Assembly (NCBI GenBank): GCA_003024175.1
Contig: MDYQ01000250.1
Span: 47,280 to 111,279, forward strand
Direction of reading: 5' to 3'
From: Planoprotostelium fungivorum
Lineage: Eukaryota; Evosea; Variosea; Cavosteliida; Cavosteliaceae
DNA length: 64,000 nucleotides
Shown here piece by piece: positions 36,625-45,228 of this stretch. The notes below the pieces were generated by a model. It saw only the letters and a program-made list of their open reading frames with translations. It was not told the DNA's origin and did not search any database. The translations under genes and the position numbers were made by a program. How positions within the stretch are numbered: the stretch's first letter is position 1; every line of letters begins with the position of its first letter.

Positions 36625-38402
36625 ATGGCAACCACTGGACCTTCTGTAATGGCCGACAAAGAAGAGGGTCAACAAATACAGATCATGACACCGCAGGATA
36701 AGATCTCACACAGCTCGCGATGTTTCTTTTCCTTCTCAACGACTCCGCAGTTTCTGTTGTGGCAACATCTGCGAGATCAGATCACCACCATCTTTCGAGC
36801 CAGCAGAGGAGACGGCTGATGTCTAACGGCATCATCTCCAGTCACGATGCTACTAAGGTCATCTTGCACACGGTGATAAACACAAGAAATGAATCACCTG
36901 ACACAAAGAGGCGACAATTCGCCGTTCTTCGCTTGACGTGCAAGTTGTGGAAAGACATCGGTGAGACACTATGACAATCAAACTCTTCTGATGTTTTCAG
37001 TCGACAGCTTCACTGACTGGCTGACCGACTGTGACCTGCTCTTGGCAGTAAAGGGAGGAAAGATTGAGTCCTTACGCTTCCTGTTAACCCGTGATGAGCT
37101 GGACCCATCCAGTGAAGACATCAAGCTACTCAGCAATGCGTCAACAAACCATTCGATCGAGATTGTACGGCTACTCTTCAATGATCATCGAATCGACCCG
37201 TCAGCAGCAGACAACGAGGCCATCATCAGTGCAGCTAGACATGGTCGGACCGATATCGTTCAGTTTCTCTTGTCCGATTCACGAGTGGACCCATCAGCAC
37301 AAGACAATTTTGCCATCAGAACGGCGGCCATAAGGGTCAAAGTGAGGCTGTAAAGCTGCTCTTATCCGATCCACGGGTGGACCCATCAGCAGAAGACGAT
37401 TATGCCGTGAGATACGCAGCCAAAGGGGGTCACACTGAGACTGTACGACTACTCTTGTCCGATTCCCGTGTGAACCCATCAGTTGAAGACAATTATGCCA
37501 TCAGAATGGCGGCCTACAGAGGCCATGCTGAAACTGTACGGCTGCTCATATCCAATCCACGTGTGAGACCATCAGCAGAAGACAATGAGGCCATCAGAAA
37601 GGCAGCTGCTGAGGGTCACTGTGAGGTCTTACGGGTGCTCTTGTCCAGCTCTCGTGTGGACCCATCAGCAGAAGACAACGAGGCCATCAGATACGCAGCG
37701 GATGAGGGTCACATTGAGGCTGTACAGCTGCTCTTATCCGATCCACGTGTGGACCCATCAGCACTAGACGATGAGGCCATGAGATCGGCGGCCTGTGGAG
37801 GATGTACTGAGATCGTACGGTTGCTCTTGTCCGATTCACGCATGGACCCATCAGCACTAGACAATGAGGCCATCAGAATGGCCGTCTATGCAAGCCATAC
37901 TGAGATTGTACGGCTACTCTTGTCCGATCCACGCGTGGACCCATCCGTTCAAGACAATTATGCTATCAGACAAGCAGCTCACGATAATCACACTGAGGTG
38001 GTGCAGCTGCTCTTGTCCGATTCACGTGTGGACCCATCAGCACAAGACAATTATGCCATCAGAAAGGCGGCATCGGACGGACATCATCGAGTAGTGGAGC
38101 TCCTCTTGGCTCATCCACGTGTGGATCCGTCAGCACAATCCGATGAGGCCATCAGAAAAGCAACTCAGAGTGGTTTCATTCAGACTGTGCGGTTACTACT
38201 GGCAGACAAACGAGTGGATCCAACCAGAAACAGCCTCATCTTCGTAGCAGCAGCAAGAGGTCACACCGATGTCGTCGATCTATTGGTCTCTCATCCTGGC
38301 GTGTATGCATCAGCGCAGATGGATGCAGCCAAGAGAAAAGTAACGGACAAGGGATACACACACGTGGAGCAGCTGCTCAACAATCACAAGCGGCAGAAAT
38401 AA
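36625..38402 (+). CDS. Ankyrin repeat protein, interrupted by a frameshift
   Basis: An N-terminal helical region (MSNGIISSHDATKVILH from 36819; RRQFAVLRLTCKLWKDI, faintly F-box-like) is joined by a 43-nt intron ending TTTTCAG to VDSFTDWLTDCDLLLAVKGG and about 14 ankyrin repeats of 33 residues with the signature LLLSDSRVDPSAxDNEAIR. Around 37330 one base is missing relative to the other repeat units (GCGGCCATAAGGGTCAA against an 18-base consensus), so the frame shifts between the second and third full repeats; the downstream frame then stays open to 38402. It ends NNHKRQK-stop with TAA inside AATAAA. The beginning is unclear: ATG 36625 (MATTGPSVMADKEEG) is in a different frame from the later part. 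This repeat type is common in amoebae and their giant viruses; the intron argues for a host gene. Confidence 0.75.
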
Positions 38403-38666: not shown

Positions 38667-41600
38667 TCACACAACGATGGACCCCATAAACTTGACGAAC
38701 CGGTCTTGGTATTGCGGCGGCGGCACGGCAGATATGGCGGAACCTCCCTCGGCAGAAGAGTAGTACAGCAACGTCTTGATCGCGTGCTCCGCCTTCTTCT
38801 TGGCATCGTACTGCGTCAAGATGTCTATGATGCCAAAGAAGTACACTTCTTCTCCCTTCTCTGGGTCACTCTCCTGCACGTGTACCGAATTGACACCACC
38901 CAACGCCACCCTCCACCGCGACACTTTGACTCTGTCCCTGTCTTCAGTCTCTCCTCTTCACGAGAGAGGCACTCACTTTGAAGGTCGTAACGGTTTCAAG
39001 AAGCGTGAGCCCGGTGGAAGTTTCTTCGAATCGTGGATGCCCACGAGAAGCGAATAGTCACAGATGTTCCTCTCTTCCAACCACTTGCTGTCTCTCTCCA
39101 ATTGGGACATGAAGAACTGAAGATCGTCAGCCTACGTGTCCACTACACCTCTCTCACCTCCTTCTGTATCTGTCCGATGTGTATGAGTCGATTGAAGTTG
39201 AGATCTTTCAATGCAACTTCTGGATTGATACCGGGGCTGATCTTCACGAGACGATCCAATTTGGACCCTTTGAGATCGTACCTCTCGTGGAGGGGTAAGG
39301 GTGTGTCGAAAATATTCTCCATGACGGCAAAGTAGATGATCTTTCCCTGGTACACCATTCGATGTAGACCGAAGAAACGAATGAGGAGGGCGTCGCGATT
39401 CCGCGAGAGGTACTGGATTCGAGTGAGATTTCGAGTTACGTATGGGGTACCTTGAAGTAGTCCGGTAAGAGACGTAAGAGGAGCATGGCCTCGTCGGAGG
39501 GTAACGTCTTTAAGAGGTAACGATCGTCAGAGGTCTTGAAGAAGAAGGAGCCGCTCCTACCCGTGGATGCTACCTGTCAGACTCTTGTCAACGTCTTGTC
39601 AGACGTGTCAGAATGACGTCACACCTCGACCAGGGTACCGAACAAACTCTCCGGAGAGAAAGAAGTCTGGGGATTTGTTGGCGTCTACAACGATGTAGAC
39701 GGACTCACCAGGTAGGCTTCGATATTGATTCCGACGAGACCTCTGAGGTAATAGAAGACGAAGGGCTCGTAATCCGTGAATGACGTCACCGTGTTACCCC
39801 TCCTCCCCGTCAGTTTGAAATTTCGATGAAAACTACTCACCTCTGGACCGGAAATTCCACCGTCTTTCCAAATTCCAAATTGTGTTCTGCGATTTCCTCG
39901 GGCACCAGGGCCGGCTCAGGAACAAAGCCACCCTCTCTCGACATCTGAACCGAAATCAGATCGAAATGAAAATTTAAAAATGGATCGTTGTAGATGATCA
40001 TTACCATGGCGACGGAGTTGGCAATTCCCATGGTGAGGGCCTCGGCCAAGTCCCAATTTTCGTGTCCGAAAAAGATTCCTCCACGGCGAACGGGGCCCGT
40101 CTCTGTTCCACGGTGAGGGGGCACGAATATTTGGTCCGTTGTAGTCTCACCCGTACCATCTAACCCCAAAATTTCGAGGAATTGTGTGTTCTTGAGTAGA
40201 CCTTCGGTGTACATTTGGAAGGTGATCTTCTTTTGATGTCCACTGATGGTGTGGAACAAATGTTTGAGCATCTGTTCGATCTATTTCGACCGTTATTTTG
40301 GCGGGAAAACGTCACTCTCACCTCCTCGGAGACTTTCGTTGCGTTCGTGAAGCGGTACAATGATTTCGTACATTCCAAGAATTTCTGTTCTACAACGAGT
40401 CAATTTCATTTCTCTCTCCCCTCACCATCCACTTTTCCCAGACTCTCGTACATCCTCCACACGACTGCATTTTTCAGCGAATGTTCCATCTACAACGATC
40501 ATCTCACAGTGTAACCTCTCCGTTAGATTTCCCTTGGTTAGCCTCCCCACCCCCTTTGCATATTCTTTAAACGTGAGACGATCGGGTGACTTCTTTTCGA
40601 ACCCTCGAAAGAGTGCGTCACCGATGGCTTCGTCGTTCAGAATGACACCGATGCAGTGAACGAAGGCTGCTTTCTCTACATCTGAACTCTTTGGTAGAGA
40701 AGGTGTCTGTGGTACGACCGAACGGCCCATGATGCGGAAGCTGGTCACGTGAGTGATGACGTGGTGTGATGTCGTACCGATCGAATTGGTTCTTGATGGA
40801 TTGTAATTCCGCGGAACCGAGGAGGAAATATTCTAGGTAATCTTCACGGAAGATATTGTGGTGGGCGGCGGCGAATTGGAGGAAGAGTACCGTACGTCTC
40901 TCAAGGACCCTCTCTAAGTCGGGGGATACGACCTGGGGGAGTGAGCGTCTACAACGAGCCGGAAATTTCACCTTCGATTCGGGTGAACCGACACCGTCGA
41001 CACCATCCACGGATCTACATTTTCATTCAATCTTTTGAGAAATTTCGACGAAATGACATTGAAATTTCCGAGAGATTTCACCTGTACAGCTCGAGGTAAG
41101 CGTCGGCCAGGTATTCGGGAAGTCCAACCGAATTGATCATCTGTGATCTCGACTCCTTCTCCGACACTTGTCGGTAAGATATCTTCGTACACGTCATGAT
41201 GACGTCATATGACGTCACTCACCTTCTTGTGTGCCACCGTTGACAGAGTCTCCGTTATTTCTGCGAGGGACAGAGCCTCCGGCCCGGAGAAAATGTAGAT
41301 TTTTCCGTAATGCCTCGTACCCTCATCAGTGATGACTGTCACGGTCAGAAGAGTTTGATCTATTTTTTAGAACATCTTACCTCTCGTGAGAGCGTCTGTC
41401 AGATCATTTACATCGATGAAACTCATTCTCGTCTGATCTTGGAGGGGTAGTTCGATTACGCCCGAGGTACGTATGCCATCGATCAGAAAACTCTGCATGA
41501 GGTAGTTGTGACGGATGATGGTGAAGTGTAGTGATGATGTCATCAACGCTTGCTCTGAGAAAAGTGAGTGAAATTTCGATACGAAAAGTGTACCCGATGC

Positions 41601-43883
41601 ATTGTGCCACCTCTCGGTTCCCACGAACGACGTCTTGATGACGTGTTCGATCTGGTAGATGTCAGATTGACACGTCACGTCAGATGTGACACCCACCCTC
41701 TTACTCTTACCGGCCTCTAAGAGGAAGATGAGTGTGTCGTTGACGTCATTCGTCGAGAAACCAACGTCCGAGTAGAGTAGAATCTTCTTCACGTCTGCAA
41801 ACAATTGCGATATCTTCGATCGAGTGAAGAAGACAACCTGAGACGTCTCAGTCGCAGATCGCATCGCAGATTTTCACCTCCGCTCCCATGGCGAGATATT
41901 GAGAGATGCAATCTTCAGATAAGATCGAATCTGTCTCTGGATCTGATCGAACGGCGATGCGTGGCGTCCACTTCTTCGTGATCAACTTCTGAATCATCGA
42001 AGAATTGACGGTACAGCTGGAGCTGTAGATTAACACCACGTTGGCCGTCTACAACGATCAGCGGGAATAATGGCGAGTTGTAGATTCACCTTCGTGTTGG
42101 GATTAGGTTGATCTCCCGCGAAATAATTCTTCCATCGTTTCGTATTGATGGTACACCGTTTGTGTCTGTAGGGTGTGTGGAGGTGTGATAACGGTTTCGG
42201 TAGCTGTTCACGTCAGTCTCTCGTCGCTTTCGCATTCGCATGGATCAGATGTAAACTCACTTGTCTCATGGGAGGGACGACGGAGGAAGTGTCCTTCGAT
42301 TGATCTGGAGTTGGCTCGTTGTAGATCTCCGAGCCACAGCTGACGACCGATGGTATAGTCACCACGAAGGTCTTATCTTGCGTCTCTCTATCCTCCCTGA
42401 TCACGTGATTGATAGCACTGATCCACCCTGAATCAATCAGACACTTGTCATCGAGTTCTCCGTGGATTTTCACCGACCTTTCCTCTCGATGTTATCGCTA
42501 GCACATAGATAGAAGGGACGATGTCTCTCTAGAATGTCTGATAGGGTGAAGCCCACCATGCCTTCTACGTCTTTCACTCGTGAGTCCTTATCTACAACGA
42601 CCGAGTTCAACGGCGTTTGGTCCTATTCCGTTCAGAATCGCAGGAACGAGACATATGCGAAACTCACGAATCTTGTCTTCATGTAACTCAATTTGACGAC
42701 TTTCTCTTCTCGGGTCATCACAAACCTTCATCGTCATCATCATCACGATCATCAACATCATCCTCAATGAATCTATCACTCACCATCTCAACTTCCAATC
42801 TGGATTGAATCTTCCCAATTTAGTGAGAGCACCCTGCATCAGAATCTTTGTCGACTCCACAGGCGGTGCCTCCGATGCTCTACCCACTACACTCACCGTG
42901 GGTCGGCTCTCGGGCCGATCTCCCTCTACAACGAGTCATTCCTCCCTCTACAACGAGCCGTTCTCACCCGGATGAATGGCTCGTGCAGCGTGGAGGTTCT
43001 GAAGCATGACGGTTGCCTTGGCGACGCTGCTGATGGGCTCATCATGACCATCATCGTTCTGACTCTTTGGGTTCCTGTGGATGGAAACTGAACCGTTTGG
43101 CTTGCGGACCGTTGTCTGTTGTACCGTGATACCGTAGCCAACGTTCACGGTCTTTTGTGTTCTGAAGCGATTCAGATGGAAGAGATGATGGATGGATGCT
43201 GGTGAGTCGATGGTGATGATGAAATGATAGAGGAGAGAGAGGAGAGGGAGATCATACCTGTTGGCAGAAGCGGCGGCGTTGAGAATGTTTCCGATGTTGG
43301 TGGAAGTGTTGTTACTGTTGTCCTCTAATCGAGGTGAAGATGGTGGCGGACTTGTTTTGACCATATCCTGCTTGTTGACTAATATCTAAGAGTCGTTGAA
43401 TATTTCTTCACGATGGAAGTACGTCTCGATGAAAGACATCGTTCTGACCTGATTAAGATTGTCTGCTGCTGCCTTGACAAAACCTCTCCCTGCATTCTGG
43501 GAGCTCTCTTCTGCATGTGATGCTGGTGGTGCATTCCCATTACCCCATTTCGATCCGCTCAATCTTCTGGTTTGATTGTGTGCCGGAGGTTCCAAATTTG
43601 TGTTGAGACTGTTTGACTTTGTTGATAACTTGATGGAAGGACGAGTTGGAGTGGGCGGGGGCGATGGAGGATGGTCTTCCGAACGTCCGAACAATCGTGA
43701 CATCATAGAAGGTGCCTGTATTGGCTGTGTCGGTGGCATGATCGGGGCTGTATAGATTAGACGAAATATCTAACCGATAAAATGAATCTCACCAGGTGCT
43801 GATTCTTCAGGTTTCGATATTGTCCCCCCACGGTTGAATTTTCTCTCGAGTTCTGAACGTATGTTCTGTTGATTCGAGGTCAT
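38667..43883 (-). CDS. PH / NmrA-like / EF-hand / phosphatidylinositol-phosphate kinase fusion
   Basis: A long multi-exon gene that I could follow in one frame from ATG 43883 (MTSNQQNIRSELERKFNRGG) to GSIVV-stop at 38667. (1) Disordered Ser/Pro region. (2) PH domain, about 42870-42390: LMQGALTKLGRFNPDWKLR, FYLCASDNIERK, SGWISAINHVIRED. (3) NmrA-like Rossmann domain, about 42050-41090: NVVLIYSSSCTVNSSMIQKL, ERWHNASEQALMTSSLHFTI, IRHNYLMQSF, MSFIDVNDLTDALTR, IFSGPEALSLAEITETLS, and its typical end VGLPEYLADAYLELYR. (4) EF-hand-like helical region, about 40940-40150 (RLTFKEYAKGVGRLTKGNL; ITFQMYTEGLLKNTQFLEIL). (5) PIP kinase: STGRSGSFFFKTSDDRYLLK, ENIFDTPLPLHERYDLKGSK, RNICDYSLLVGIHD, IIDILTQYDAKKKAEHAIK. 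The kinase should make PI(4,5)P2; the NmrA-like part lacks the glycine motif. Splitting into two genes is possible but no stop or start supports it. Confidence 0.8.
39683..39700. repeat. Intronic palindrome GTCTACAAC-GATGTAGAC
   Basis: 18-bp inverted repeat near the 5' splice site of a PIP-kinase intron. The exons on either side join as INIEAYL to TSFSPESLFGTLVE, so the whole palindrome is removed by splicing. Confidence 0.85.
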
Positions 43884-44376: not shown

Positions 44377-45228
44377 ATGAAACGCCACGCAGAAGAGATG
44401 ATTGGTGGAGGAGAGGACGATGCGGCTGTTGATACCACAAAGTCTGGTCTGAAAACGTGGTTGGTAAAGATTCCCAAAGATCTATACGAGGCTTGGAGGA
44501 CACTTGGACATAATTCACAACTTGGAGAAGTGACCATCTTAGAAGAAAAGGGAAAGAAGCCAGAGGTGAGATCACACTCCACCACATCACATCTGATATC
44601 TGAAGATGTCCATCAATCTCGCACCCGAATGCGACGCACGTCTTCCAAGAAGCTATAGGCTACAATATAATCAGACTTCCACACCCATTCGAGTGTTCTC
44701 AGAGAAAGAGGGGACTAATGCACTGGCCATAGAGGGCACAGTAGAATACACCTGCGATGTCAGTCCATTGGATCCCAATGCCCCCGAATATCGTGCCACC
44801 GCCAGAGAGCGCATGAAGAAATCAGAAGTGAAGACCAGACAGGTGATCGCCTCCATTTCCATTTGAAACTCTTTCTGATCTCTCCATCTCAGATCAAGAC
44901 CATCAGCACACCGACTTACTCTACAGTCGGAAAGATGCCCATGATGTCTAGAAAGCCTCCCGTGGAGAAGAGAACGAGAATGGCAGAGAAAGATCTACAG
45001 AATGAAATCTTCTCTGCATTCGAAGAGTCTGAGTACTGGTCGCTCACTCAACTCGTAGAGAGGACGAAACAGCCGGCGGTGAGATGACGATGGAGATGAC
45101 TTGGCATGCTGATGGAACCTCTGCAGCAATACTTGAGGAGTGTGTTGGAATTGGTTGCAGAACAGAACAAGGCAGGGCCTTATAAGACACTGTTCCAGCT
45201 GAAGGAAGAGTACAGAAGAAGGAAATGA
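44377..45228 (+). CDS. GTF2F2: Transcription initiation factor IIF subunit beta (RAP30)
   Basis: General RNA polymerase II initiation factor that pairs with RAP74. Start 44377 (MKRHAEEMIGGGED). N-terminal dimerisation part: TWLVKIPKDLYEAWRTLG, GEVTILEEKGKKPE, then across an intron SINLAPECDARLPRSYRLQY, TPIRVFSEKEGTNALAIEG and the second exon end MKKSEVKTRQ. The third exon holds the linker and winged helix: TPTYSTVGKMPMM, DLQNEIFSAFEESEYWSLTQ, LVERTKQPA; after a short intron the end is QQYLRSVLELVAEQNKAGPY, KTLFQLKEEYRRRK-stop. Length (about 250 residues) and order match the family. AATAAA occurs 12 nt after the stop. MED4 converges from the other side. Confidence 0.92.

What the first reader, a model, noticed from the sequence alone, without database searches (positions are those of the whole stretch)
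38667..43883. One gene appears to join a PH domain, an NmrA-like Rossmann domain, an EF-hand-like region and a PIP kinase
The exons can be followed in one frame across short introns: PH exons, PPMRQ to LPKPLSH, NPNTK to TANVVLIYSSS, the NmrA end HKK to ISYRQVSEKE and LELYR, then SVDGVDGVGSPESK to VVSPDLERVLERR and on to the kinase. NmrA-like proteins (e.g. HSCARG) sense NADP(H) redox state; PIP kinases make PI(4,5)P2. A single protein with both, plus membrane and possibly Ca modules, would couple redox or calcium state to phosphoinositide synthesis. I know no described family with this order. The fusion itself is inference from frame continuity.
Basis: partly seen in the sequence, partly recalled or inferred. 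Interest (0 to 1): 0.78.

Follow-up and report, generated by a model that had tools for sequence, protein, structure and literature searches.

The report
PIP kinase fused to two pseudo-sensors
An amoeba gene really does join a membrane-binding PH domain, an NmrA-like domain and a calcium-sensor-like domain to a lipid kinase that makes a key membrane signal, and at least two relatives share it, but both sensor parts seem to have lost the residues that would bind NADP or calcium, so they probably act as docking parts rather than sensors.

Summary
The minus-strand gene (43883 to 38667) is Planoprotostelium fungivorum PROFUN_08482. I model 29 exons, 1295 residues: disordered N-terminus, PH, NmrA-like, neuronal-calcium-sensor-like (NCS) EF-hand region, PIP kinase. 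The fusion no longer rests on frame continuity alone: exon 17 by itself encodes the last ~28 residues of the NmrA domain and the start of the NCS domain, and two further proteins, a EukProt TRINITY transcript (47% identity) and the product of a 3.8-kb JGI contig (38%), have the same order in one frame. Redox/calcium coupling is not supported: the GxxGxxG loop is altered in all three proteins, and the three recognisable EF loops lack normal calcium ligands. Kinase motifs are intact and look type I. NCS-PIP kinase fusions are known (Plasmodium; also dictyostelid, ciliate and other proteins here); the PH-NmrA addition is what seems new. Best reading: a PH-targeted PI4P 5-kinase whose NmrA and NCS modules have become pseudo-sensor scaffolds.

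The parts
38667..43883 (-). whole gene, 29 exons, 1295-aa protein; PROFUN_08482
   Evidence: exon list, one stop, at the end; P0001, 96% identity over residues 440-1311 of the 1311-aa version of the model
42843..43883 (-). long low-complexity N-terminal region (aa 1-265), poorly conserved (residues 1-268: 9/55 and 26/122 aligned residues identical to P0002 and P0003)
42396..42842 (-). PH domain (aa 266-363), DAPP1/TAPP1-like, with the basic K-x8-K-x-R pattern
   Evidence: the meaning of the basic pattern is recalled
40849..42048 (-). NmrA-like domain (aa 447-741), GxxGxxG loop lost
40778..40932 (-). exon 17: one open frame holding the NmrA C-terminus (40932-40849) and the start of the NCS domain (from 40848)
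40161..40848 (-). NCS-like (frequenin/GCAP/recoverin type) EF-hand region (aa 742-918), normal calcium ligands lost
38679..39633 (-). PIP kinase catalytic domain as matched by PF01504 (aa 1031-1292); the kinase region shared with relatives starts earlier, at about aa 927 (exon 22)
   Evidence: fold of the relative P0002:
41078..41080 (-). TGA directly after ...LELYR if intron 15 is not spliced; with an ATG at 41006-41004 the one two-gene break I found worth testing, rejected
40933..40971 (-). intron 16 (39 nt), between exons 16 and 17

Best explanation
One gene encodes a four-module PI4P 5-kinase. Shown by sequence: PH, NmrA-like, NCS-like EF-hand and PIP kinase modules in one protein, the same order in three proteins, kinase motifs intact, and the cofactor loops of the two middle modules degenerate. 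Inferred: the PH domain brings the enzyme to phosphoinositide-bearing membrane; the kinase there turns PI4P into PI(4,5)P2; the NmrA and NCS modules no longer sense NADP(H) or calcium and serve as pseudo-sensor scaffolds that hold the kinase in register or bind partner proteins.
Against: No RNA from P. fungivorum itself was available. The NmrA domain is kept in all three proteins, so some ligand may still bind; P0003 keeps the first and last glycine of the loop. Glu, a possible calcium ligand, stands at position 1 of one EF loop in two of three proteins. Substrate choice rests on one recalled residue; PIP4K2A scores only 1.3 Z lower than PIP5K-alpha, and by sequence the best PDB match is PIP4K2B. 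The NmrA and NCS folds were not confirmed by structure: job 1 pLDDT 34; job 2 pLDDT 57.8, with high confidence mainly in the kinase.
Confidence: 0.72

Rival explanations
1. The NmrA and NCS modules still sense NADP(H) redox state and calcium, directly coupling both to PI(4,5)P2 synthesis.
For: Modules are related to NmrA/SDR proteins and to calcium sensors (NCS-1, GCAP); NmrA and HSCARG are described as dinucleotide-binding regulators; P0003 keeps two of three loop glycines; related PIP kinases have EF-hands above cut-off.
Against: GxxGxxG altered in all three proteins; first recognisable EF loop without normal ligands at positions 1, 3 and 5 (position 1 is Glu in two of three), next loop two residues short, last loop about one short; no Pfam EF-hand family in any of the three, only weak USP32_N matches, E=0.017 and 0.078.
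Confidence: 0.1
2. Two adjacent genes: a PH-NmrA protein ending at the TGA at 41080-41078 and an NCS-PIP kinase starting at the ATG at 41006-41004.
For: A stop follows LELYR if intron 15 is retained, and a continuation MVSTVSVHPNRR-RSLPQVVSPDLE... can be read with another acceptor (reading).
Against: It would cut the NmrA domain before its C-terminus, which lies in exon 17 (also for P0002); P0002 and P0003 read straight through; public annotation reads through (P0001); the two genes would be only about 70 bases apart.
Confidence: 0.03
3. The kinase has type II preference (PI5P 4-kinase) or a broader one rather than PI4P 5-kinase specificity.
For: The best PDB sequence match by E-value is PIP4K2B, 1.4e-41, against 3.5e-38 for PIP5K-alpha.
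Against: Glu at the (recalled) type I position in all three proteins; structural match highest for PIP5K-alpha, though PIP4K2A is only 1.3 Z lower.
Confidence: 0.12

Closest known systems
Plasmodium falciparum PfPI4P5K (PF3D7_0110600), NCS-EF + PIP5K, and Toxoplasma TgPI4P5KA
   Same: N-terminal NCS-type EF-hand domain joined to a type I PIP kinase (PMC10543664, passages seen)
   Different: No PH or NmrA domain mentioned for it in the passages seen; not compared by sequence here
Ankyrin-C1-EF-hand-PIP kinase of Acytostelium subglobosum (P0006)
   Same: EF-hand region before the kinase; hhalign of the NCS parts E=2.3e-8; near the fusion clade in the kinase tree at weak support, 87/79
   Different: Ankyrin and C1 in place of PH and NmrA; EF-hand pairs above Pfam cut-off
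Dictyostelium PikI (PIP5 kinase; PMC3969243, passages seen)
   Same: Amoebozoan type I PIP kinase; PI(4,5)P2 falls by 90% without it
   Different: 'EF-hand' does not occur in the paper's main text (0 occurrences); NmrA not searched there; not compared by sequence here
HSCARG/NMRAL1 and Aspergillus NmrA
   Same: NmrA-like Rossmann family (PMC3999155, PMC5122588, passages seen)
   Different: Described there as dinucleotide-binding regulators; here fused to a kinase, and the binding loop is lost
Triphenylmethane reductase (2vrc) and E. coli YtfG (2zcu)
   Same: Closest solved structures to the NmrA part by sequence
   Different: Stand-alone oxidoreductase chains; the alignments begin after the cofactor loop (query residue 66 or later)

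Membership tests
PIP kinase (PF01504) | family profile above cut-off and catalytic motifs present | tested here: met
   E=1.1e-75, 255 bits vs 27; DLKGS, DYSLLVGIH, IIDILT aligned
PIP kinase (PF01504) | type I (PI4P) specificity | tested here: inconclusive
   Glu at the recalled specificity position; no assay
PH domain (PF00169) | profile above cut-off | tested here: met
   35.4 bits vs 25.1
PH domain (PF00169) | phosphoinositide binding | not testable with these tools
   basic pattern like DAPP1 only; P0003 lacks the second lysine
NmrA-like (PF05368) | family profile above cut-off | tested here: inconclusive
   P. fungivorum 23.5 and P0002 24.5 bits vs 27; P0003 42.7, above; PDB relatives E=2.2e-11. 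Filed as NmrA-derived by descent only
NmrA-like (PF05368) | dinucleotide-binding GxxGxxG loop (feature recalled) | tested here: not met
   SSSCTVN; intact in four of four stand-alone bacterial relatives aligned. Not filed as a dinucleotide-binding member
NCS / EF-hand calcium sensors | sequence relation to NCS proteins | tested here: met
   profile E=3.5e-12 GCAP2, 1.3e-10 frequenin
NCS / EF-hand calcium sensors | at least one canonical calcium-binding loop | tested here: not met
   no canonical loop seen in any of the three proteins; no Pfam EF-hand family. Not filed as a calcium sensor
NCS-PIP5K (apicomplexan type) | NCS-like domain directly before PIP kinase in one protein | tested here: met
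   comparison with the Plasmodium protein is from text only

The most novel reading that the evidence does not exclude
PH-NmrA-NCS-PIP kinase is a distinct amoebozoan enzyme family that began as a PIP kinase under joint NADP(H) and calcium control and is losing both inputs step by step (two loop glycines kept in P0003, one in P0002, none in P. fungivorum), with the Rossmann pocket now reading a different ligand.
Probability: 0.15. Interest if true: 0.65.

Novelty: new variant of a known kind. Interest (0 to 1): 0.46.

Why it matters
It adds a conserved module combination to the PIP kinases. It gives a natural case where two sensor domains are kept in one enzyme after apparently losing their ligand sites, so what such pseudo-sensors do to a lipid kinase can be tested directly. 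It also shows that the NCS-PIP kinase pairing, discussed for parasites, occurs in amoebozoans with lineage-specific N-terminal modules.

Tried and rejected
Two-gene reading: rejected. Gene-model variants: intron 11 is kept in the public protein P0001 but absent from both relatives. My first model (1317 aa) carried six residues that P0002 lacks (removed, 1311 aa) and lacked intron 21 (added, 1295 aa). Searches used the 1311-aa version; the pieces typed into searches are unchanged in the final model. I took an NmrA gene lying next to another PIP kinase (C316) for a possible fusion source; it is a separate open frame on the opposite strand.

Searches with little yield: the profile search with A3 returned only P0002 and two distant kinases, missing two of its own members; the P0003 region search found P0003 and P0001 but not P0002; all three protein searches were capped at just under 8,000 scored candidates. 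So absence from them says little about how widespread the family is. The genome-contig scan (prokaryotes) gave 54 pattern matches and no confirmed relative. Structure job 1 failed in quality (pLDDT 34). Structure job 2 modelled the kinase best, and the 50 rows shown by each fold search were PIP kinases, so PH, NmrA and NCS folds remain untested by structure. The species behind P0002 and P0003 are not given by the database.

Weak points. The NmrA-tail half of exon 17 on its own aligns only weakly (1 of 500 shuffles reaches its score with P0002, 8 of 500 with P0003), whereas the NCS half is strong (0 of 500 for both). The NmrA-tail assignment therefore rests on the alignment with four bacterial proteins; by tblastn only two of these four matches reached that part of the query (H1 to residue 307 and H2 to 308 of 322; H3 stops at 270, H5 at 246), and the other two were aligned there by MAFFT. 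The PDB alignments stop at the first residues of exon 17 (query residue 278 of 296). NCBIfam TIGR03649 reaches its position 283 of 287 at P0002 residue 541 with E=2.4e-10, far below that model's naming cut-off (40 vs 256 bits); in P0001 it stops at its position 253, and in P0003 it gave no match. PF05368 searched against the own genome gave 30 matches, none of them in this gene.

Tree: 38 of 45 sequences used; P0001 was left out as a duplicate of the model and six (P0026, P0028, P0030, P0032, P0034, P0043) fell to my match-length filter. The program warned of long branches, among them P0027.

Full report
What was checked. The finding lies on the minus strand. Three-frame translation and splice sites gave a gene model, corrected against a relative to 29 exons and 1295 residues. 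All 28 introns start with GT and end with AG; they are 36-96 nt long, 22 of 28 of them 36-51. The own-genome search places the window at G000:C203:47280-111279 of a 36.86-Mb assembly. The protein search names the gene PROFUN_08482 of Planoprotostelium fungivorum, an amoebozoan of class Variosea. The public protein (1368 aa) differs by a longer N-terminus, a retained intron 11 and small splice differences.

Modules. Pfam places PH at 266-363 and PIP5K at 1047-1308 of the 1311-residue version (1031-1292 in the final one) above cut-off, and NmrA below cut-off. The weak modules were tested on their own. The NmrA part matches triphenylmethane reductase and YtfG (E=1.9e-10 and 1e-8; profile 2.2e-11). 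The region before the kinase matches NCS proteins: GCAP2, frequenin, recoverin, NCS-1 (profile 3.5e-12 for GCAP2). The kinase matches PIP4K2 and PIP5K structures. The PH domain matches DAPP1 and TAPP1 (E=2.5e-6 and 1e-4).

Is it one gene? If intron 15 were retained there is a TGA right after LELYR, with an ATG about 70 bases on, so a two-gene reading had to be taken seriously. Three results reject it. First, four bacterial stand-alone NmrA-type proteins (L030-L033; the 4 fetched of 34 matching plasmid records), aligned in full with MAFFT, run through the disputed junction and end within a few residues (nine at most) of where exon 17 reads VVSPDLERVLERR...HHNIF; exon 17 then runs on into the NCS domain in the same open frame. 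So the join lies inside one exon. Limits of this alignment are told under Tried and rejected. Second, of 42 proteins found, three cover 99-100% of the query region: P0001 itself, P0002 (a EukProt TRINITY ORF) and P0003 (from a 3,828-base JGI contig, 1236 aa). The other 39 cover at most 61%. Both relatives carry PH, NmrA and PIP5K in this order (NmrA below cut-off in P0002, above in P0003). Third, tblastn of each relative on the window, independent of my model, gives matches in order along the gene, with one weak stray match (E=0.28). Identity by module with P0002 / P0003: PH 55/38%, NmrA 37/36%, NCS 59/38%, kinase 60/49%.

SVDGVDGVGSPESK to VVSPDLERVLERR is not EF-hand-like; it is the NmrA C-terminal segment. 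The real EF-hand-type region starts with REDYLEYF at about 40848 and ends with FLEILGL at about 40161.

Do the modules sense? GxxGxxG reads SSSCTVN (P. fungivorum), GANCLFI (P0002) and GLNFVVG (P0003), against GASGNVG, GATGATG, GATGTTG and GTTGTVG in the four bacterial proteins. In the NCS region the first recognisable loop reads EKKSPDRLTFKE, EKRSKESLTFKE and VKANPNKLTFKE: the usual ligands at positions 1, 3 and 5 are gone (position 1 is Glu in two of three), only the last Glu stays. The next loop is two residues short and the last about one short against NCS proteins. Related PIP kinases keep EF-hands: 9 of the 42 proteins carry an EF-hand Pfam label, among them Acytostelium P0006 and the GRAM-containing P0027. 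The NCS profile aligns with the EF region of P0006 at E=2.3e-8 and of P0027 at 1.3e-7. So the calcium ligands were probably lost in this line while the domain itself stayed. This is inference from sequence; no binding was measured.

Mechanism. Most likely a PH-targeted PI4P 5-kinase with two pseudo-sensor scaffolds. Shown: the modules, their order, the same order in three proteins, and the loss of ligand residues. Inferred: membrane targeting, substrate, scaffold role.

Known work. The NCS-EF plus type I PIP5K fusion of Plasmodium is described, as is its stimulation by Arf1 in vitro (PMC10543664, passages). Dictyostelium has seven PIP kinases and PikI is a type I enzyme (PMC3969243, passages). 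HSCARG and fungal NmrA as dinucleotide-binding regulators: PMC3999155 and PMC5122588, passages. No paper holding both 'NmrA-like' and 'phosphatidylinositol-4-phosphate 5-kinase' was found (0 papers), seen as listings only, showed no title on this architecture; the library holds open-licence papers only. The four-module order therefore appears undescribed as far as these searches reach: a new variant of a known kind.

Noticed in passing
window 27235-58729, 21 places; also genome-wide: A short motif, TCGTTGTAGA, occurs 21 times in the window against 0.14 expected. GGCTCGTTGTAGA occurs 1042 times in the genome against 0 for the reversed control, and CGTTGTAGATGG 2351 times against 8. It lies in both orientations. 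In this gene it sits in several introns (final numbering 4, 9, 16, 18, 19, 24; reversed in 22) and also in exons 7 and 8; in introns 4, 9 and 19 its TAG is the 3' splice site. Its nature is unknown to me.
   Followed up: partly
window, second motif family (no places listed): CGCCTGTAGC occurs 8 times in the window (both strands counted together) against 0.02 expected.
   Followed up: no
37239-38402, + strand: 387-aa open frame made of ankyrin repeats with much alike units (Ank_2 E=5.8e-57), next to and convergent with the PIP kinase gene.
   Followed up: partly
about 44377-45228, + strand: Probable TFIIF beta subunit gene (TFIIF_beta_N E=2.3e-6 on a piece of its first exon; its end is my reading), divergent from the PIP kinase gene.
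   Followed up: partly
G000 contigs C90/C115, C446 (two places), C17/C38: PIP kinase matches appear in pairs with identical scores, which may be duplicated or allelic contigs in the assembly.
   Followed up: no
P0001 (PROFUN_08482): The public protein model seems to retain intron 11 (VGVTSDVTCQSDIYQ), skips three residues (IEQ), keeps six residues (in TPTNPQ) absent from both relatives and has a doubtful N-terminal extension, judged against P0002 and P0003.
   Followed up: yes
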